Shown in pieces: positions 1 through 8,690 of a stretch of DNA of 64,000 bases. The stretch is from assembly GCA_012729675.1 (NCBI GenBank), contig JAAYCR010000005.1, forward strand, positions 1 through 64,000, in the 5' to 3' direction. The notes below the pieces were generated by a model, which saw only the letters and a program-made list of their open reading frames with translations, was not told the origin of the DNA and did no database searches. Made by a program: the position numbers and the translations under genes. Source of the DNA: Phycisphaerae bacterium (GTDB lineage: Bacteria > Planctomycetota > Phycisphaerae > Sedimentisphaerales > Anaerohalosphaeraceae). Each line of letters opens with the position of its first letter. Within the stretch, counting starts at the first letter, position 1.

Positions 1-148
1 ATGGTTTCGACGTTTGATCGAACGCAAAAGCAAACGGCGAGAGACAGCACGGTTTTATCATTACAAGCGACATAAGTTATTGGCTCCGTTAAGAGTTAAA
101 GAACGAAAATGAAATTGGACAGTACAACTATAACGAACCGAATATTTT

Positions 149-1195
149 ATGCAGTTTTCAAAAGATTCTATTATCGGATTATTCATTGGGCTTTTCTTCA
201 TTGCCGGTATTGCTTACGTGATGAATAGCCCCACGCTTTTGACATCCGCCGAACCTGCTCGCCAGATGCCGCAGGTCGATAGCAACCCAAGGGGGGGCTT
301 GGATGAAATTCGCTTCGCAGACCTTCAGATTGAGGCGGTTTTTATCGATATGGAACGATACCTTGGATGGTATCCAGATGATAAGAAACGCATAAAGCAC
401 GCCGCGGAAAAAGCAGTCTTGGAACTGAAGGCCGTTAAAGATTTCTTAAACCAATTAATTCTGCCCGACAATCTGGCAGAGTTGAAAGAGGAACAAATTG
501 AGCTTATTGTTGCATTATCCAACGCCTATAATCGCATTGAGTCCAAGAGTCCGGATCAGGTAGAGGGGGCACTTAGCCCGATTTTTTCACTTTATTCAAA
601 TTATTACGGTAAAATGCTTAAAACCTTGGAAAAGGCTGACCTCACAATTGACCCGCTTGAAGGATGTAATCCGATTCAGGAGCAGACCAGATATACCGCC
701 GATGAAAATGACCGTCAACTCTATTGGACTGCGGTTGAACAGATAGCAGGCGGCAATTATACTGCGGCGTATGACATGCTGTTGCCGGTGCAGAAAAAAT
801 ACGAAAACACGATATTCGGAACCTGTATTGATTTTAGATTGGCCTGTTGTCTTGTCCGTGCTGAATCATCCGAACAGGCTGTCGAAATATTGGCAGGGAT
901 TATTGACAGTCAATCTTACTGCCCTGTTCTTTATGATGCATTTATTCACTACCGGACACAGACACAGGCACTCAAATACGGCATGTCCAATTATTCCGAT
1001 ATTCCAAACTGGGACTACAATCTGATGCGGTGGAATGCAATACAGACCATCAGACGATATCTCATTGAAAAACCGGAAGATATGTGGGCACAGCATCAAG
1101 CTAACGAGCTTTTGACCCTGCCCAATATTGGATGTGGAGGGTCTTTTGGTAACGACAACATCACCTATTGGTTAGAACTGTATGGGGCAGAATAA
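149..1195 (+). CDS. Membrane-anchored protein of unknown function
   Basis: I do not recognise this family. The 348-residue product opens with one hydrophobic segment (about residues 8-25) after a short charged tail, so it is probably anchored in the inner membrane with the rest in the periplasm. The remainder is helical and hydrophilic. Residues about 190-260 (repeated alanine/tyrosine helices around GNYTAAYDMLLPVQKKY) resemble TPR-like helical pairs, but this is inferred by eye. Five cysteines lie in the C-terminal half, including a final GCGGSF segment. The start has no strong Shine-Dalgarno sequence. It lies on the same strand as the AAA+ ATPase gene, about 180 bp upstream, in an A+T-rich segment unlike the G+C-rich core, which suggests acquired DNA. 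Confidence 0.6.
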   Translation: MQFSKDSIIGLFIGLFFIAGIAYVMNSPTLLTSAEPARQMPQVDSNPRGGLDEIRFADLQIEAVFIDMERYLGWYPDDKKRIKHAAEKAVLELKAVKDFLNQLILPDNLAELKEEQIELIVALSNAYNRIESKSPDQVEGALSPIFSLYSNYYGKMLKTLEKADLTIDPLEGCNPIQEQTRYTADENDRQLYWTAVEQIAGGNYTAAYDMLLPVQKKYENTIFGTCIDFRLACCLVRAESSEQAVEILAGIIDSQSYCPVLYDAFIHYRTQTQALKYGMSNYSDIPNWDYNLMRWNAIQTIRRYLIEKPEDMWAQHQANELLTLPNIGCGGSFGNDNITYWLELYGAE

Positions 1196-1377
1196 GACCC
1201 ATAGTTATTTGATTTGACACTCAGCACGGCTGACCGAATCGGCATCACCAAATCTTAATATTTTCGGCTCATATTACGATTTATAATATGCTTCGGCACA
1301 CCCTGTCGTACCCCTCCCATATAATACTTCGTGGTTCAGGAACTCGGAGCGTTATTGAAATCAAAGGACAGAAAACT

Positions 1378-3351
1378 ATGGCAGACCTTGAAAATTTTGA
1401 AATTCAGTGCCCGCGATGCGGATTGCGTATTGATTTAAAGGACGACACCTTTTGTATGATTCCAGAACCGGAACCGACACACAAGCAATCCGAGAGCAAG
1501 CCAGTCTCCATGCAAGCGGATAATGATTTTTCACGAAAAGCAGCGGCACCATTTAAATCCGATGAAGAAATATTGGAGCTTATACTCCAGATATTTGAGT
1601 TGCGTAATTCATTGAACAAAAATATGTCTCTTTTAGGCGACGGCAAAAGCAATAATATAAATGCAGGGATTGAAATCAAGATGACAAATTATTTTCATAA
1701 GTGCATCGATTCAACAGATTCCAGCGTCTATATTGTTGATATTATCAAGAAGTTTAAGCTACGCCGGATTGAAAGAGAGGTCTTGTTGCTTTTTACCTTA
1801 AGTCATTTGGGGATTATTCGAGGGGTCTCCTCTGCTGCGGCCATGCAAAAATGGTTTGAACGAAGTGGCAAAACTGTGTTAAATGTCATAAGGACAATAA
1901 GTGAAGGCAGCAGATTATTGACATCCCGCCTGATTCAGCAAGACAGCGAGGACGATTCCTACTGCGTTGGCTCTGAATTTATAGAACCTCTTATCAACAA
2001 AACAAAACGGTTTGTCACCGGATGGGATGTCAAATCCTACAGTGCCTTGCTCGACAAGCTCTATGACATCTCAAAAGTTGCCAAAAACAGGGCGGATGCT
2101 ATCGAAAGAGTACAGGTCAGTTACCGCACACATACATCTGGAAAACACTTTACCAAGGTGATTGAAGACAATCTCTGGCGATTGAAAAATACTCTTGAGA
2201 AACACCCCAACTGGCCGCTCAACAAACTGATCAAGTCAAAACTGAATGATTCAGAAAAGCTTATCGTGTTGATATTAACCAGTAAAGATCTCGGACATTT
2301 TCGCCCTGATGATGAGTTATTCACAGGTATCGGTTTAGCCCGCTCTGTCAGCGGTAAAGTCCCCGATATAAGACATAATATGTTTCTTCTTAATCGTGAC
2401 CATAAATTACGCAGGGAGGAATATATCCGAGTCTGCGGAGGTCTTTCAAATACATATGAGACAGAAGACGAAGGCACCCTGCAAAGCTGTGAATTCGAGT
2501 TGACCACAAAGTCGCTTGAGCTATTTAAAATCAAACGTCAGCGTCGAGAAAGCCAGTCTGCCAGAAAACCTGTTGTGACATTTGACCAGTTGATATTTCC
2601 TGATGAAATGCAGGAGTTGATTGACATGTGTCTTTGTCAGATACAACACAAAAACATCCTTTTTGAGCAGTGGGGATTAGGTGACACACTCGCATACGGC
2701 AAAGGGGTTACTATGCTTTTTTCGGGTAGTCCGGGAACAGGAAAAACCGCCTGTGCCGAGGCAATCGCACATAAATTGAACAAGTCAATTATTGCTATCA
2801 ATTACGCGGAAATACAAAACTGCTGGGTTGGCCAAACAGAAAAAAATATTGTCAGGGCCTTCCGAGAGGCGACGGAGTCCGATTCCGTATTGCTTTGGGA
2901 TGAAGCCGATGCCATGTTCTATGACAGAGAGACAGCTTTTCGAAACTGGGAAGCTCGGACAGTTAATTTACTGTTACAGGAAATTGAACGTTTTGAAGGG
3001 GTATGTATATTGTCAACCAATCGAAAAGGATGCTTGGACAGTGCACTTAGCCGACGTATTTCTTTAAAGCTGGAATTTGATCTGCCAGTACAGAAGAATC
3101 GATACAGAATTTGGAAAAAGATAATTCCTTCCAAAATGCCCTTGGCCAGCGATGTGTCTATTCAGGAGTTAAGTCATACCGAGTTGTCGGGTGGTGAAAT
3201 TAAAAATGTTCTTGTTAATGCAGCTCGAATCGCACTGAAACGGAATGGAGGTTCTGCGGTAACCAAAACCGATTTTATGGAGGCCATTAAAATGGAGAAA
3301 GATGGTAGGTGGGGAAAAGGATTCTCCAAAAAGTTTGGATTTGGGACATAG
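1378..3351 (+). CDS. AAA+ ATPase with N-terminal zinc ribbon
   Basis: A single-module AAA+ ATPase of about 657 residues. The start at 1378 is preferred over an in-frame ATG 90 bp upstream because it follows AAAGGACAG and begins just before the CPRCG motif. That motif, with a later Cys, suggests a small zinc ribbon at residues 10-30. Residues about 60-420 are helical with winged-helix-like stretches and could bind substrate or DNA. The ATPase core has Walker A (GSPGTGKT, about residue 450), Walker B (LLWDEADAMF, about 502), a sensor-1-like LSTN and a double arginine (SRRISL) in the arginine-finger region, then a helical lid. This layout matches the CDC48/FtsH/spastin-like clade of remodelling ATPases, but no protease domain is present. 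The substrate is unknown. It may work with the membrane protein upstream. Confidence 0.8.
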   Translation: MADLENFEIQCPRCGLRIDLKDDTFCMIPEPEPTHKQSESKPVSMQADNDFSRKAAAPFKSDEEILELILQIFELRNSLNKNMSLLGDGKSNNINAGIEIKMTNYFHKCIDSTDSSVYIVDIIKKFKLRRIEREVLLLFTLSHLGIIRGVSSAAAMQKWFERSGKTVLNVIRTISEGSRLLTSRLIQQDSEDDSYCVGSEFIEPLINKTKRFVTGWDVKSYSALLDKLYDISKVAKNRADAIERVQVSYRTHTSGKHFTKVIEDNLWRLKNTLEKHPNWPLNKLIKSKLNDSEKLIVLILTSKDLGHFRPDDELFTGIGLARSVSGKVPDIRHNMFLLNRDHKLRREEYIRVCGGLSNTYETEDEGTLQSCEFELTTKSLELFKIKRQRRESQSARKPVVTFDQLIFPDEMQELIDMCLCQIQHKNILFEQWGLGDTLAYGKGVTMLFSGSPGTGKTACAEAIAHKLNKSIIAINYAEIQNCWVGQTEKNIVRAFREATESDSVLLWDEADAMFYDRETAFRNWEARTVNLLLQEIERFEGVCILSTNRKGCLDSALSRRISLKLEFDLPVQKNRYRIWKKIIPSKMPLASDVSIQELSHTELSGGEIKNVLVNAARIALKRNGGSAVTKTDFMEAIKMEKDGRWGKGFSKKFGFGT

Positions 3352-3445
3352 CGCAAATTGAAGACGAATCAGACGCAGTGTCTGTCTGCGGTTAGTTTTT
3401 GTGTTTGAATGGTTAAGAAAACTTTTTTTTGAAAGGACAGAAAAG

Positions 3446-4120
3446 ATGAAGAACAGGAGAATGACACTTTGGTTGGCAGTTGTACCGTTGATTATAAGTA
3501 CAGGAGCTGATGCGTTCATTGAGGTATCGATTACTGGAGGTAGCCATTTTCAAATAACCTCAGGTGATTGGTGGGTAAATGTGCATGACACGAGCAGTGT
3601 AGATATTTATGGGGGACAAATGTATGTATACCTTCACCAAAACAGCAAAGCAGATATTTTTGGCGGCACTGTATATTATCACGAGACTAAAGGCGAAAGT
3701 AGATCAAACATTTCAGGAGGTACAATTTGGACTCTTTGGGCAATCGACAGAAGTCGGTCAAATATTTCTGGTGGCAACACAGGAACAGTATATGCCAAAA
3801 ATCAAAGTAGAATAACTATTAGTGGCGGAATGGTAAACAAGGTAAGTGCCGCAGATTCTTCCTTTGTTAGATTTACTGGTTACGATTTTGAAGCATCAGA
3901 CGGGTTGAGCTTTGTTGGTGAACCTACTGTGGGTTGGCAAATCGCACTACATGGATGTGGTACTTTGTCGGGTAAATGGGCTGATGGGACAAGTTGGACA
4001 ACATCTATTGAAAATGGACGTAATATGCAAGTATATACAATCGTCCCAGAACCCACCACGCTGTTGATATTGGGTTTTGGCGGCTTGGGTTTGCTCAAGC
4101 CCAGAAATAGGTATTTTTAA
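3446..4120 (+). CDS. PEP-CTERM secreted protein with beta-solenoid repeats
   Basis: The start at 3446 follows GAAAGGACAG and gives a clean signal peptide (MKNRRMTLWLAVVPLIIST, cleaved near GADA). The body holds four to five degenerate repeats of about 20 residues ending in I-x-GG or ISGG, a pattern typical of right-handed beta-solenoids. The C-terminus is a PEP-CTERM sorting tag: VPEPTT, a hydrophobic stretch, and a short basic end (KPRNR). In PEP-CTERM systems an exosortase removes this tag and moves the protein to the surface; no exosortase gene is in the window. It follows the AAA+ gene by about 95 bp and ends at a hairpin. Ligand and function are unknown. Confidence 0.8.
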   Translation: MKNRRMTLWLAVVPLIISTGADAFIEVSITGGSHFQITSGDWWVNVHDTSSVDIYGGQMYVYLHQNSKADIFGGTVYYHETKGESRSNISGGTIWTLWAIDRSRSNISGGNTGTVYAKNQSRITISGGMVNKVSAADSSFVRFTGYDFEASDGLSFVGEPTVGWQIALHGCGTLSGKWADGTSWTTSIENGRNMQVYTIVPEPTTLLILGFGGLGLLKPRNRYF

Positions 4121-4137
4121 AAGGAGGGGTTTCCAAA

Positions 4138-4167
4138 GAGGTTCTATCTTGGTCAAGGTAGAACCTC
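4138..4167 (+). terminator. Hairpin terminator after the PEP-CTERM gene
   Basis: The arms GAGGTTCTATCTT and AAGGTAGAACCTC pair with one mismatch around a 4-base loop, followed by ATTTTCT. It lies 18 bp after the PEP-CTERM stop codon. The T run is short, so termination strength is uncertain. The hairpin is nearly symmetric and could also stop transcription from the minus-strand side. Confidence 0.6.
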
Positions 4168-4172
4168 ATTTT

Positions 4173-5066
4173 CTACCCCACCCGCACAATCGCCTCCAGC
4201 CGCTGTTCAGGCCAGGGATGCAGAATTTTCGCTGGGGGCAGTACGGCATCTGCAATCTTTGTCATTCGGTCCCAGTTAAGACGGCTTTTCTGGCTTCTCC
4301 GCTTCAGCGTTTTGTACCACATGCGCGTGACTTGGGTACAGAACGCCCCAAGCGTCTTCCAGTTTCCCGGAATGGCATGATATTGGTAGTACCCTCTGAC
4401 AACGGAACGCAGCCATTGGGCCTGTTCCCCAATGGGCTGATGCATGCGCTTTTGTAGTTCTGCCTTGACCTCGTGAAGTTTAGCATTAAACCGCTTCTTC
4501 ATCGTGATCCGACTGATCATAAACTTCCCGTTTTTGTTCACACCACAATAGTGTGTAAACCCAAGGAAGTCGAAGGTCTCTGGCTTCTTCCCGTCAAAAC
4601 GCCTGCAATCCCGTCGGGCAAAGTGCTTGAAACGGATGAGGCGCGTCTTTTCGGGGTGAAGTTTTAACGAGAACTTCTCCAATCTGTCGTGCAATTCTGT
4701 GTGAAACCGCTTCGCATCGTCTTCATACTGAAACCCTACGACAAAGTCGTCAGCCCAGCGAACGATAATCACATCACCGCGTGCATAGCGTTGCCTCCAC
4801 TGATGTACCCAGAGATCCAGAACATAGTGGAGATAAACGTTCGCCAGCAAGGGTGAAATGGATGCTCCTTGCGGGGAGCCTGCTCCGCTCGCTGTCCATT
4901 GCCCGTCCTCAATGACTCCGGCTTTCAACCACTTTCTGATCAGGCGAAGCATACGCTTATCGATAATGCGATGCTCCATAAACTTGATCATCCAGTTGTG
5001 GTTAATCGAATCGAAGTAACCTTGGACATCTGCATCAAGAATCCAGCTTATCTTCTTGAAACGTAT
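4173..5066 (-). pseudogene. Group II intron reverse transcriptase/maturase, 5'-truncated
   Basis: On the minus strand the frame runs from LDADVQGYFDSINHNW (5041 downward) to the stop at 4173. It carries the RT motif GSPQGASISPLLANVYLHY, the catalytic box as RWADDFVVG (WADD in place of the usual YADD), TFDFLGFTHY, and a C-terminal region resembling maturase domain X. These identify a group II intron-encoded RT of the LtrA type. The N-terminal RT blocks are missing: upstream the frame runs straight into IS66 sequence at about 5067. I found no domain V/VI ribozyme hairpin below 4173, so neither intron boundary is present. It is a fragment, though a protein starting at the internal ATG (4991) could be made. 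Confidence 0.85.
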
Positions 5067-5068
5067 TC

Positions 5069-5305
5069 CTAGAAGTAAGCATTTTTGCGGTGCAAAATTG
5101 CTTTTTTAAGGGCGCGTTCACAGATGTTATTGTCCAGGGGTGCCCCCGGCTGCCTTAAAAACAGCGTCAGTTCCTCCCAGTGCCGCAGCATATAGCCGAT
5201 CGCCTCCCCCCCCAGTCCGCTGTTGGGTTCGACCTTTTTTTGCTCAATCTGCTCGGCCAGCCAAATCTTCAGTTCCGCCATCCCCGGGCCGCTGTGGGTC
5301 CGATG
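5069..5305 (-). pseudogene. IS66-family transposase, C-terminal fragment
   Basis: The minus-strand frame contains LDWHRTHSGPGMAELKIWL, EAIGYMLRHWEELTLFL, PGAPLDNNICERALKKAI and HRKNAYF. This is the conserved C-terminal catalytic end of IS66-type DDE transposases; the Glu in CERAL fits the last acidic catalytic residue. The usual continuation after KNAYF (YKT and about 40 residues) is absent: the frame stops at once at the junction with the reverse transcriptase fragment. Upstream it is joined directly to asnS at about 5303. Both ends are therefore truncated and no terminal inverted repeat is visible. Confidence 0.85.
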
Positions 5306-5960
5306 CCAGTCGAGTCGTCCTTTTTTCGGCGCGGAATGTCGGCCCGAAGCAATACACCTTGCCAAAACTCATCGCCGCGCTTTCCAGATACAACTGCCCC
5401 GTCTGCGACAGAAACATCGGCTGGCCGAAATAATCGACCGCAAACAGCGTCTGCTCGCCCTCGCCCGCCGCGGCGGTAAAGATCGGTGTATCGACCAGCG
5501 TAAACCCGTTGTCGTTGAAAAACCGCCGGATGGCGTCGATGACCGTGTGCCGCACCCGCCCGATGCACCACGGCCGCTGGCTCCGCAGGTGCAGATGCCG
5601 GTTGCGCATCAGAAACTCCACCCCGTGCTCTTTGGGCGTGATCGGGTACTCCTCCGTCGGGCAGATCACCGCCGCATCCGTGACCGCCAGTTCCACCCCG
5701 CCCGGCGACCGCGGCTCGGCACGCACCGTACCGGTCACCGTCAGCGACGATTCCTGCCCCAGCCGCTTGACGGCCTCGAAGACCGCTTCGCTGACGCCGG
5801 CCGCCTCGACGACGCACTGACACAGACCCGTCCCGTCCCGCACCACCACAAACAGCACCTTGCCGCTTGCCCGGTTGTGATACACCCACCCGGCGAGCGT
5901 CACCGTTTGTCCGATATAATCCGAAAGCCGATTTATGGTTGTCTTTGTTGTCTCTGTCAT
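5303..5960 (-). pseudogene. asnS: Asparaginyl-tRNA synthetase, truncated after motif 2
   Basis: AsnRS charges tRNA-Asn with asparagine. The first ~218 residues are intact: an OB-fold anticodon-binding domain (about 10-110, with TLAGWVYHNR and VVRDGTG), then the class II core with FNDNGFTLVDTPIFT (motif 1 region) and GPTFRAEKRTTR (start of motif 2). The family continues with RHLTEFW and about 240 more residues holding the ATP site and motif 3; here it switches within a few bases into IS66 sequence. The product cannot be active. The start at 5960 follows AGGATAACGCA and lies 33 bp after the P-type ATPase stop, so it was probably the last gene of that operon. An intact copy elsewhere, a GatCAB route, or an assembly error must be considered. 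Confidence 0.88.
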
Positions 5961-5993
5961 TGCGTTATCCTGTGTCTGAAAACGGTACTTTCA

Positions 5994-8690
5994 TCATTCG
6001 TGTTTGGGCGCACGACCATGAACGCCGAGCCGTTTGAGTAGTTCCTCGACGACCCAGATGGTGCCGGCCATCAGCACGATACGGAGCCAGTCGGCCGCCG
6101 ACAGCGAGGTTGTGCCGAACAGCGTCCGCCCGACAGCGGTGTGGACGACGGCGACCTGCATCAGGATGGCTGCCGCGACGCCGGTCAGCAGCCATTTATT
6201 ACTGAATATGCCGATGGAAAAAATGGACTGGTAGTGGCTTCTGGCATTGAAGGCTTGGAACCACTGGAAGGCCGCCAGCGTCGTAAAGGCCACCGTCCGG
6301 GCGTATTCCAGCCCGCCGGGGCGTGCCCCATGGTACATCAGCAGTGTCCCGGCCGCCATCAGCGGTGTCAGCAGCACGATGCGACGAATCAAATCACCGG
6401 TCAAAATCGACTGGCGCGGGTCGCGCGGCGGCAGTTTAAGCACGTCCCAGTGCTTCGGTTCCACCCCCAGCGGAATCGTGCACGCCCCGTCGGTGACCAG
6501 ATTGATCCATAAAATCATCACCGCCGTCAGCGGCAGATCAAGCCCAATCAGCAGCGCCGCAACCATGGTCAAAATCTCGCCGATATTCGTGGCGACCAGA
6601 AAATACACCACGCGCCGAAGATTGCTGAAGATCACCCGTCCTTCTTCAATCGCGTGAACAATCGTCGCGAAGTTGTCATCCGTCAAAATCATATCGGACG
6701 CCTCCTTGGCCACTTCAGTGCCCGATTGTCCCATCGCAATCCCGATATCGGCGCCCTTCAGCGCCGGCGCATCGTTGACCCCGTCGCCGGTCATTGCCAC
6801 CACATGCCCCTTTTCGCGCAGCGCTTCCATAATCTTGAGCTTGTGCGCCGGCGAGACCCGCGCAAAGACCCCCGACCGCAGCGCCGCGGCGGCCAGTGCG
6901 GGCTTGTCCAGCGTATCAATCTCCGGCCCCGTCAGCGCCTGCCCATCGCCGGCGATGCCAACCTGTTTGGCAATCGCCAGCGCCGTGGCGGCGTGGTCGC
7001 CGGTAATCATCACCGGATGAATCCCGGCCTCTTTGGCCTGTCGGACGGCTTGGACGCTTTCTTCGCGAGGTGGGTCAATCATCGCCCACAGCCCCGCCAG
7101 CATCAGGCCGCCCTCGACGTCCTCCGGCGCGAGCGTCTGCTTGTCCTCTTCAAAATCGACATACGCTGCGGCCATCACCCGCAGCGCATCGTCTGCGAAA
7201 TCCTCAATCGCCTGTGCAACGGTCTGTTTTTGTTTGTCATCCATCACCACCCCATTGCCGTCCTTGAGCACATACGTGCAGAACTCCAGCAGGCGGTCGG
7301 CACCCCCTTTAACATACGCCCGCGTCCCCCGGCCCTCCTGCGAATGCAACGTTGCCATATATTTGCGCTCACTGGAAAACGGAATTTCACTTAGCCGCGG
7401 ACTGTCTTTTTGCAGCGCCTGCAGATCTATTCTTGTTTTCTGTGCCGCCGTCAGCAAAGCCGCCTCGCTCGGATTGCCGTCGGCCTGCCAGCGCCCGTCT
7501 TGTTCGTGAATGCGGGCATTGTTGTTCAGCACGCCCGTTTGCAGCAACACTTCCAGAGCCTTTGGCATGTGCTCGATTGTCTTGCCTGCCTGGTCTTTCA
7601 ATTGCCCCTTCGGTTCGTACCCTTCGCCCGTCAGTTCAAATGTCCTGCCGTCGGCCCACATCTTACGCACCGTCATCTGGTTTTTGGTCAGCGTACCGGT
7701 TTTGTCCGTACAGATCACCGTGGTCGATCCCAGCGTTTCGACCGCGGGCATGTGCCGGATAATCGCGTGCCGGTCCGCCATCCGCCGCACGCCCATCGCC
7801 AACGTTACGCTGATGACCGCCGGCAGCCCTTCAGGGATCGCCGAGACCGCAATCGCTACGGCAAACATAATCGCCTCGGTAACCTCATAAGCCCGCACAA
7901 TCTCCAGGGCCAGCACCACCAATGCCAGGCCGATACCCGCCGCCCCCAGTACGATACCCAGCGTATGCATCCGCTTTTGCAGCGGTGTTTGTTCGCGCAG
8001 TGTGGAGCGGACGGCGCCGGCGATCTGTCCCATTTGCGTCTGCATGCCCGTGTGTACCACCACCGCCCGGCCGCGGCCGCCGGTGACATTCGTGGACATC
8101 CAGACCATATTGCGGCGGTCCGCCATCGCCGTGCCCTCATCCAGCGTCTCGGATCGCTTGGCGACCGGCTGCGATTCGCCCGTCAGCGCCGATTCGTCCA
8201 CCTGAAGTTCTTCGGCGGCGAGCAGCCTCGCATCGGCGCTGACCCGGTCGCCGGTTTCCAGCAGCAAAACATCGCCCGGCACAACATCCGAGGCCTCGAC
8301 CTCGATCGGGTTGCCGTCTCGCAAGACCTTCGCGTGAAGCGAAGCCATCCGCCGCAGTGCCGCCAGCGCCCCCTCGGCCCGCCATTCCTGAAAAAAGCCC
8401 AGCAGGCTGTTGAACACGATCACACCGACAATGACGCCGGCGTCAATGAATTTGCCTGCCGCCAGCGACAGCACCGCCGCACCAATCAGCAGGTAAATCA
8501 GCGGATTGTGCACCTGGCGAATCAGCAGTTTCGCCGGGTTTACGCTCTCTTCAGCTTCCAGGGTATTGGGGCCGACCGTCTTCAGTCGCTGTGCGGCGTT
8601 TTCGGCACTGAGTCCTTCGGTTGCGCTTTCCAGTCGTTCTGTCACCGCTTCGGCCTCCAATGCGTGCCAAGCCGTTTGAGAGGTACTCAT
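5994..8690 (-). CDS. P-type cation-transporting ATPase (type II, Ca2+-ATPase-like)
   Basis: An 898-residue P-type pump that uses ATP to move cations across the membrane. The N-terminal cation-ATPase domain (WHALEAEAV...GLSAENAAQRL) is followed by TM1-2, the actuator loop with TGES, and the phosphorylation site CTDKTGTLTKNQM (about residue 328). The hinge TGDGVNDAPALK and a C-terminal six-helix bundle complete the family length. Ion-site residues match SERCA-type pumps: PEGLP in TM4, NIGEIL in TM5 and NLVTDG in TM6. This supports calcium or a related cation rather than a heavy metal; ion identity is inferred. The start has GGAG upstream. It is in a minus-strand run with potassium uptake genes, suggesting a joint role in ion homeostasis. 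Confidence 0.92.
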   Translation of the reverse strand: MSTSQTAWHALEAEAVTERLESATEGLSAENAAQRLKTVGPNTLEAEESVNPAKLLIRQVHNPLIYLLIGAAVLSLAAGKFIDAGVIVGVIVFNSLLGFFQEWRAEGALAALRRMASLHAKVLRDGNPIEVEASDVVPGDVLLLETGDRVSADARLLAAEELQVDESALTGESQPVAKRSETLDEGTAMADRRNMVWMSTNVTGGRGRAVVVHTGMQTQMGQIAGAVRSTLREQTPLQKRMHTLGIVLGAAGIGLALVVLALEIVRAYEVTEAIMFAVAIAVSAIPEGLPAVISVTLAMGVRRMADRHAIIRHMPAVETLGSTTVICTDKTGTLTKNQMTVRKMWADGRTFELTGEGYEPKGQLKDQAGKTIEHMPKALEVLLQTGVLNNNARIHEQDGRWQADGNPSEAALLTAAQKTRIDLQALQKDSPRLSEIPFSSERKYMATLHSQEGRGTRAYVKGGADRLLEFCTYVLKDGNGVVMDDKQKQTVAQAIEDFADDALRVMAAAYVDFEEDKQTLAPEDVEGGLMLAGLWAMIDPPREESVQAVRQAKEAGIHPVMITGDHAATALAIAKQVGIAGDGQALTGPEIDTLDKPALAAAALRSGVFARVSPAHKLKIMEALREKGHVVAMTGDGVNDAPALKGADIGIAMGQSGTEVAKEASDMILTDDNFATIVHAIEEGRVIFSNLRRVVYFLVATNIGEILTMVAALLIGLDLPLTAVMILWINLVTDGACTIPLGVEPKHWDVLKLPPRDPRQSILTGDLIRRIVLLTPLMAAGTLLMYHGARPGGLEYARTVAFTTLAAFQWFQAFNARSHYQSIFSIGIFSNKWLLTGVAAAILMQVAVVHTAVGRTLFGTTSLSAADWLRIVLMAGTIWVVEELLKRLGVHGRAPKHE

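What the first reader, a model, noticed from the sequence alone, without database searches (positions are those of the whole stretch)
1378..4120. AAA+ ATPase with zinc ribbon beside a membrane protein and a PEP-CTERM protein
The ATPase has a complete motor but no recognisable protease or nuclease part, and a large unassigned central region. Together with a membrane-anchored helical protein it is located in an A+T-rich segment ending in mobile DNA. An accessory remodelling or defence function is possible.
Basis: inference. Interest (0 to 1): 0.5.

Follow-up and report, generated by a model that had tools for sequence, protein, structure and literature searches.

The report
Stand-alone AAA unfoldase with WYL-linked relatives
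A rare bacterial ATPase that probably threads or pulls apart proteins, built like the loader motor of bacterial injection machines but living without the machine, and in about half of its relatives sitting next to a WYL stress/defence-type gene switch.

Summary
The ATPase (1378-3351, 657 aa) is real and has an intact classical AAA motor. The zinc ribbon is not supported: one CxxC, in a disordered tail, with no second pair. The unassigned central region consists of two winged-helix domains related by duplication, joined by a helical hairpin. The first matches the N domain (Pfam WHD) of the ATPases of extracellular contractile injection systems (eCIS, Pvc15 type). The protein belongs to a rare, monophyletic, patchily inherited family (13 members found in Planctomycetota, Myxococcota, Hydrogenedentota and Acidobacteriota). 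It has one AAA ring, lacks the D1 ring of Pvc15 and has no injection system beside it. The membrane protein and the PEP-CTERM protein are not conserved partners. In 7 of 13 members the neighbour is an (HTH-)WYL(-WCX) regulator, five of them divergent as described for CapW; in five genomes it is the only WYL gene detected. None of 74 AAA relatives outside the family has one. The window's genome has no WYL gene, so this copy is an orphan. Best reading: an accessory, probably stress- or phage-induced, protein-threading remodeller that works without a protease or nuclease. The substrate, and defence as such, are inferred, not shown. New variant of a known kind.

The parts
1378..3351 (+). AAA ATPase of the winged-helix/AAA family (657 aa, stop included)
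1729..2001 (+). first winged-helix domain (residues 118-208)
   Evidence: models; VIA-align matches to MarR/Fur-type regulators, Z up to 6.9; profile match to the eCIS ATPase N domain, probability 93.7, E 1.9e-7
2038..2202 (+). helical hairpin between the two winged helices (residues 221-275)
   Evidence: models
2248..2526 (+). second winged-helix-like domain (residues 291-383), a duplicate of the first
   Evidence: profile comparison of the two halves, probability 86, E 4.9e-6; model; one MarR-type match (2fxa, Z 5.9, rmsd 4.9 over 98 residues) spans it
2560..3312 (+). AAA motor with lid (residues 395-645)
2725..2748 (+). Walker A, GSPGTGKT
2824..2832 (+). pore loop 1, W-V-G
   Evidence: alignment, (family-wide W, F or L followed by V-G)
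2887..2910 (+). Walker B, VLLWDEAD
3052..3057 (+). paired arginine fingers R559, R560
1408..1419 (+). lone CPRC motif (the alleged zinc ribbon; not conserved)
149..1195 (+). neighbour, not part of the conserved unit: N-terminally anchored helical protein
3446..4120 (+). neighbour, not part of the conserved unit: PEP-CTERM protein
1..133 (.). repeat shared with the end of contig C29 (98%), its last ~40 bases partly also with the ends of C91 and C39: probably the end of a mobile element
4173..5060 (-). C-terminal fragment of a group II intron reverse transcriptase/maturase
5069..5365 (-). IS66 transposase fragment joined to a truncated asnS-like gene (5244-5960)

Best explanation
It is a single-ring, protein-threading AAA remodeller. 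Shown by sequence and model: an intact AAA motor with a hydrophobic pore loop (W/F/L-V-G) and paired arginine fingers; a duplicated winged-helix N module; no second enzymatic domain. Shown by comparison: membership of a small monophyletic family whose recurrent neighbour is an (HTH-)WYL(-WCX) regulator. Inferred: six subunits form a ring; the winged-helix module selects a target (a protein, or a protein on DNA); ATP hydrolysis pulls the target through the pore and unfolds it or strips it from its complex, with no attached protease. Inferred: in most relatives the WYL protein holds the gene off until a nucleic-acid or stress signal (DNA damage, phage) releases it. The window's copy has lost or never had that regulator and is probably constitutive or degenerating.
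For: Motor motifs intact in the ten aligned members that carry the whole AAA region. PDB matches are protein remodellers: p97/Cdc48, Rix7, NVL, the 26S ATPases, Vps4. Winged-helix N module. Family monophyletic with support 98/94. WYL neighbour in 7 of 13 members and in 0 of 74 AAA relatives outside the family. In five genomes (G071, G337, G553, G680, G684) it is the only WYL gene detected. By my arithmetic, the chance expectation for a WYL gene within about 2 kb is about 0.03 over all 13 genomes. CapW, a wHTH-WYL-WCX repressor, is reported upstream of and on the opposite strand from the CBASS genes it represses (PMC9122588, passages). Some members lie among defence or mobile genes: L031 with a Dsr1-like protein and an integrase, L029 beside a PDC-S05 gene, L036 on one contig with a type IIG restriction enzyme.
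Against: No WYL gene at all in the window's genome, nor in G266 and G682; G103 has three, none adjacent. L034, L132 and L133 have ordinary neighbours: an AIR-synthase-related gene, an rsmB-like gene and a glycoside-hydrolase-like gene, so a defence island is not the rule. No common operator palindrome between the WYL and ATPase genes. Nothing here shows threading, oligomerisation or a substrate. The net charge of the winged helices is near zero or negative in most members, which gives no support to DNA binding.
Confidence: 0.45

Rival explanations
1. An IetA-type antiphage ATPase that works with a protease, possibly encoded elsewhere: unfolding feeds a serine protease as proposed for IetAS (recalled).
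For: Best curated matches for the motor are IetA models: NCBIfam 100 bits, PADLOC 110 bits.
Against: The matches cover the AAA part only, far under the NCBIfam cut-off of 510 bits. No subtilisin-like gene among the neighbours scanned. Short IetA-like ATPases lack the winged-helix module and fall outside the family in the tree.
Confidence: 0.13
2. An orphan cargo loader of an extracellular contractile injection system (Pvc15/Cis15 type).
For: Homologous N domain. Many AAA relatives lie among sheath, tube, eCIS_core, Pvc16 and baseplate genes.
Against: No sheath gene in the window's genome; only 2 of 13 member genomes have one above the cut-off, on another contig than the ATPase. No D1 ring in the model, whereas each of the domains N, D1 and D2 is needed in Pvc15 (PMC11495950, abstract and passages).
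Confidence: 0.05
3. A DNA-acting factor: the two winged helices bind DNA and the AAA ring remodels a nucleoprotein complex (replication, transposition or repair).
For: The winged helices resemble MarR- and Fur-type DNA binders. WYL regulators such as PafBC and DriD answer DNA damage (PMC9122588 and PMC9122601, passages). A DnaB_C-like gene follows the ATPase in L027.
Against: No consistent positive charge on the winged helices; the DnaB_C-like neighbour is not seen directly after the ATPase in other loci; the N domain of Pvc15 has no demonstrated nucleic-acid binding (PMC11495950, passage).
Confidence: 0.2
4. A general housekeeping chaperone of this lineage.
For: A complete AAA motor; PDB relatives include general segregases.
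Against: Full-length relatives in only 2 of 39 genomes of the taxonomic family, and in none of the three other genomes of the genus.
Confidence: 0.02

Closest known systems
eCIS loader ATPases (Pvc15/Afp15/Cis15; Pfam WHD PF22977 + AAA)
   Same: Homologous winged-helix N domain and the same kind of active C-terminal AAA domain with a DEAD-type Walker B
   Different: No D1 ring, a second winged helix in that place, no injection-system genes beside it; separate clade
IetA (IetAS antiphage system)
   Same: Nearest curated models for the AAA domain
   Different: IetA-like proteins are short (models of about 260-400 positions) without winged helices; no S8 protease neighbour found; far below cut-off
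CapW / BrxR type wHTH-WYL-WCX regulators with their defence operons
   Same: Neighbouring regulator of the same domain make-up, often divergent (PMC9122588)
   Different: The partner here is a lone AAA ATPase rather than CBASS or BREX; no regulation has been tested
Classical protein-remodelling AAA (p97/Cdc48 D2, Vps4, Rix7)
   Same: Motor, pore loop and arginine fingers
   Different: Single ring with an unrelated N module

Membership tests
Classical AAA ATPase (PF00004) | Walker A, Walker B, sensor 1, arginine fingers, score over the curated cut-off | tested here: met
   89.3 bits against a cut-off of 21.2; motifs
Zinc-ribbon protein | two pairs of metal-binding Cys/His | tested here: not met
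   one CxxC only; pLDDT under 50; not conserved
eCIS loader ATPase (Pvc15 type) | N-terminal WHD domain | tested here: met
   family level: PF22977 in 5 of 11 members at E up to 1, best 6.2e-6, not in the window's protein alone; L133 just over the cut-off, 27.3 against 27; profile-profile probability 93.7
eCIS loader ATPase (Pvc15 type) | tandem D1 and D2 AAA domains | tested here: not met
   the model has no Rossmann-like domain between WH1 and the AAA domain; no profile alignment outside WH1
eCIS loader ATPase (Pvc15 type) | sheath/tube genes nearby or in the genome | tested here: not met
   0 sheath hits in the window's genome; 2 of 13 member genomes over the cut-off, on other contigs
IetA | score above the curated cut-off | tested here: not met
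   100.2 against 510 bits
IetA | adjacent subtilisin-like IetS | tested here: not met
   none among the window neighbours or the scanned neighbours of relatives; some contigs end early and not every neighbour was scanned
WYL-controlled defence operon (CapW/BrxR type) | adjacent HTH-WYL-WCX regulator | tested here: inconclusive
   7 of 13 members have an adjacent WYL gene, with WCX in 6 of the 7 and a Pfam HTH in 5 of the 7; absent in the window's own genome
WYL-controlled defence operon (CapW/BrxR type) | regulator represses the partner; pair protects against phage | not testable with these tools
   needs experiments

The most novel reading that the evidence does not exclude
A two-gene, signal-gated unfolding system: a WYL protein senses a nucleic-acid or stress signal and releases an AAA segregase that uses a duplicated winged-helix module to seize a phage or host protein complex and unfold it, with neither protease nor nuclease. 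It would be the motor of an injection-machine loader re-used on its own as a stress or immune effector.
Probability: 0.2. Interest if true: 0.7.

Novelty: new variant of a known kind. Interest (0 to 1): 0.42.

Why it matters
If right, it ties an uncharacterised AAA clade to the WYL class of defence and damage regulators. It would show that the winged-helix/AAA architecture, known from loading injection-machine cargo, also works as a free-standing regulated remodeller. The pair is small enough to be tested in a laboratory strain.

Tried and rejected
Zinc ribbon: rejected. Partnership with the membrane protein: rejected. PEP-CTERM gene as partner: no PEP-CTERM gene was met among the neighbours scanned; not searched for specifically. 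Orphan eCIS loader: largely rejected. IetA membership: rejected on score and partner. Plasmid carriage: N-terminal queries of two members gave no match in 72,556 plasmid records; the full-length query matched 1253 plasmid records, none over 80% of its length. Phage carriage: 68 of 50,697 phage records matched, none over 80%; a viral-contig scan gave 4 loci matching parts of the AAA domain only. A shared operator palindrome was not found. Rfam found nothing in 1-6000. Foldseek of the N module against the PDB gave nothing at E 0.001 or better; VIA-align Z of 6.9 or less is middling by the tool's own note. The hhalign probability of 86 for the internal duplication is moderate and rests on 65 columns. 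Rows dropped: the neighbour blast printed only pairs over 40 bits; the tree left out L029 and L133 (truncated) and 17 of 20 AAA rows of the taxonomic family that look like FtsH (L002, L006 and L013 kept); the motif table covers 11 members, of which L029 lacks most of the AAA domain, with L132 printed in the same call and read by eye, and L133 truncated.

Literature: searches (listings); passages read in PMC9122588, PMC9122601, PMC4012209, abstract and passages in PMC11495950. None of these described a WYL plus winged-helix/AAA pair; the library lacks most subscription journals, so this is no proof of absence. What is said of IetAS as ATPase plus subtilisin is recalled, not read.

Full report
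What is there. The ORF at 1378-3351 (+) encodes 657 aa with an AAA domain at residues 446-568 (E 3.9e-25). Its motifs are complete: GSPGTGKT, LLWDEAD, STNR, paired arginines RR, and a pore loop W-V-G. PDB sequence matches are p97/Cdc48, Rix7, NVL and, weaker, proteasome-activating ATPases. No protease or nuclease domain is present. The zinc ribbon is a single CPRCG in a disordered N-terminal tail that the aligned relatives do not conserve. Upstream (149-1195) is a membrane-anchored helical protein with only a weak BamD/TPR-like match; downstream (3446-4120) is a PEP-CTERM protein.

Surroundings. The window starts at the first base of its contig. Bases 1-133 recur (98%) at the end of contig C29, and a stretch of 40 of them (92-131) also near the ends of C91 and C39, as expected for the end of a mobile element. 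Downstream are a group II intron reverse-transcriptase fragment, an IS66 fragment and a truncated asnS-like gene. That junction stretch is single-copy in the assembly. The 42% GC of this segment is not special: 18-22 kb, with ordinary genes, is as low.

The unassigned region. A model of residues 55-398 from 11 family members has mean pLDDT 85.9 and pTM 0.71. It shows two winged-helix-like units joined by a helical hairpin. VIA-align, a second look at Foldseek's candidates, ranks MarR- and Fur-type regulators first (best Z 6.9, rmsd 2.2 over 80 residues); Foldseek alone found nothing significant. The first unit aligns with the second (probability 86, E 4.9e-6, 65 columns) and with the N domain of ATPases of the eCIS-type clade (probability 93.7, E 1.9e-7, 106 columns). 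PF22977 (winged helix domain, variant) matches 5 of 11 members at E up to 1, best 6.2e-6, though not the window's protein alone. The N domain of Pvc15 was likewise reported to resemble MepR (PMC11495950, passage); MepR is among our rows as well. The family has no D1 ring, which Pvc15 needs (PMC11495950, abstract).

The family. Full-length or N-region relatives: L027/L033 (46% identical), L028, L029 (truncated), L030, L031, L034, L035, L036, L037 (contig edge), L038, L132 and L133 (contig edge), 13 with the window. They are rare: 2 of 39 genomes of the taxonomic family have a full-length copy, the other matches being AAA-only, by their length and motor apparently FtsH; 5 of 294 in a phylum sample; 3 of 397 in a class sample by profile; only the starting genome in 347 genomes of the phylum of L038 and in 345 genomes of the phylum of L034. 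In a tree of 88 AAA domains the 11 members included form one group (98/94); Myxococcota copies sit inside it among Planctomycetota copies, which suggests horizontal transfer. A neighbouring larger clade is the winged-helix/AAA group, many of whose loci carry sheath, tube, eCIS_core, Pvc16 and baseplate genes. Another is a group of short ATPases (IetA-like by size and motor). Which of the two is sister is not resolved.

The conserved neighbour. A WYL gene lies next to the ATPase in L027, L029, L030, L034, L038, L132 and L133, 7 of 13. In five of these it is divergent (in L029 with a PDC-S05 gene between); in L027 it is upstream on the same strand; in L038 it follows the ATPase. WCX is found in 6 of 7 and a Pfam HTH in 5 of 7. 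In five genomes (G071, G337, G553, G680, G684) it is the only WYL gene detected; in G032 and G319 it is one of two. Two members (L035, L037) have the ATPase at the contig start, so what lies upstream is unknown. Against the association: no WYL gene in the genomes of the window, L031 and L036, and none adjacent in L028. Control: a profile of the seven WYL proteins found none in the 74 loci of AAA relatives outside the family, 67 of which have at least 2 kb upstream; the profile is self-built, so the seven positives match by construction. My arithmetic gives about 0.03 chance neighbours expected over 13 genomes; the members are related, so they are not independent trials.

Function. The motor and pore loop argue for protein threading. 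The missing D1 ring and missing injection genes (no sheath in the window's genome; 2 of 13 member genomes over the cut-off, on other contigs) argue against cargo loading. The WYL neighbour argues for conditional expression: CapW, of the same domain make-up and divergent, represses CBASS (PMC9122588, passages), and WYL proteins such as PafBC answer DNA damage (same paper). Some members lie among defence or mobile genes (L031, L029, L036), others between ordinary genes (L132, L133, L034). I therefore commit to a regulated accessory remodeller and leave defence as the more likely but unproven purpose. The window's copy has no WYL gene in a genome rated 99.92% complete and sits beside an unrelated membrane protein found in none of the other 38 genomes of the taxonomic family.

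Verdict. Observation partly confirmed; interpretation partly supported; new variant of a known kind; interest 0.42.

Noticed in passing
window 5244-5960 (-): An asparaginyl-tRNA-synthetase-like gene is cut off at an IS66 fragment; no other fragment of it turned up (PF00152 hits: two complete genes elsewhere, by their lengths probably AspRS and LysRS, plus this piece). Either a real loss or an assembly join.
   Followed up: partly
window 1-133; contig ends of C29, C91, C39: A repeat at contig ends sharing ATGAAATTGGACAGTACAA, probably the end of one or two IS types that broke the assembly.
   Followed up: partly
L027:622-1500: A 293-aa stand-alone DnaB C-terminal (helicase/KaiC-like) gene directly after the family ATPase.
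   Followed up: no
L031:3037-6567: A 1177-aa SIR2 protein with a Dsr1-like match, in a locus with a tyrosine integrase and a family ATPase.
   Followed up: no
L133, L132: Two planctomycete members in different genera share closely related WYL regulators (43%) while their ATPases align at 30% over the overlapping part: the regulator seems better kept than the ATPase N region.
   Followed up: no
L039, L050: Archaeal AAA proteins (363 and 444 aa) branch near the base between this family and the eCIS-type clade, unresolved.
   Followed up: no
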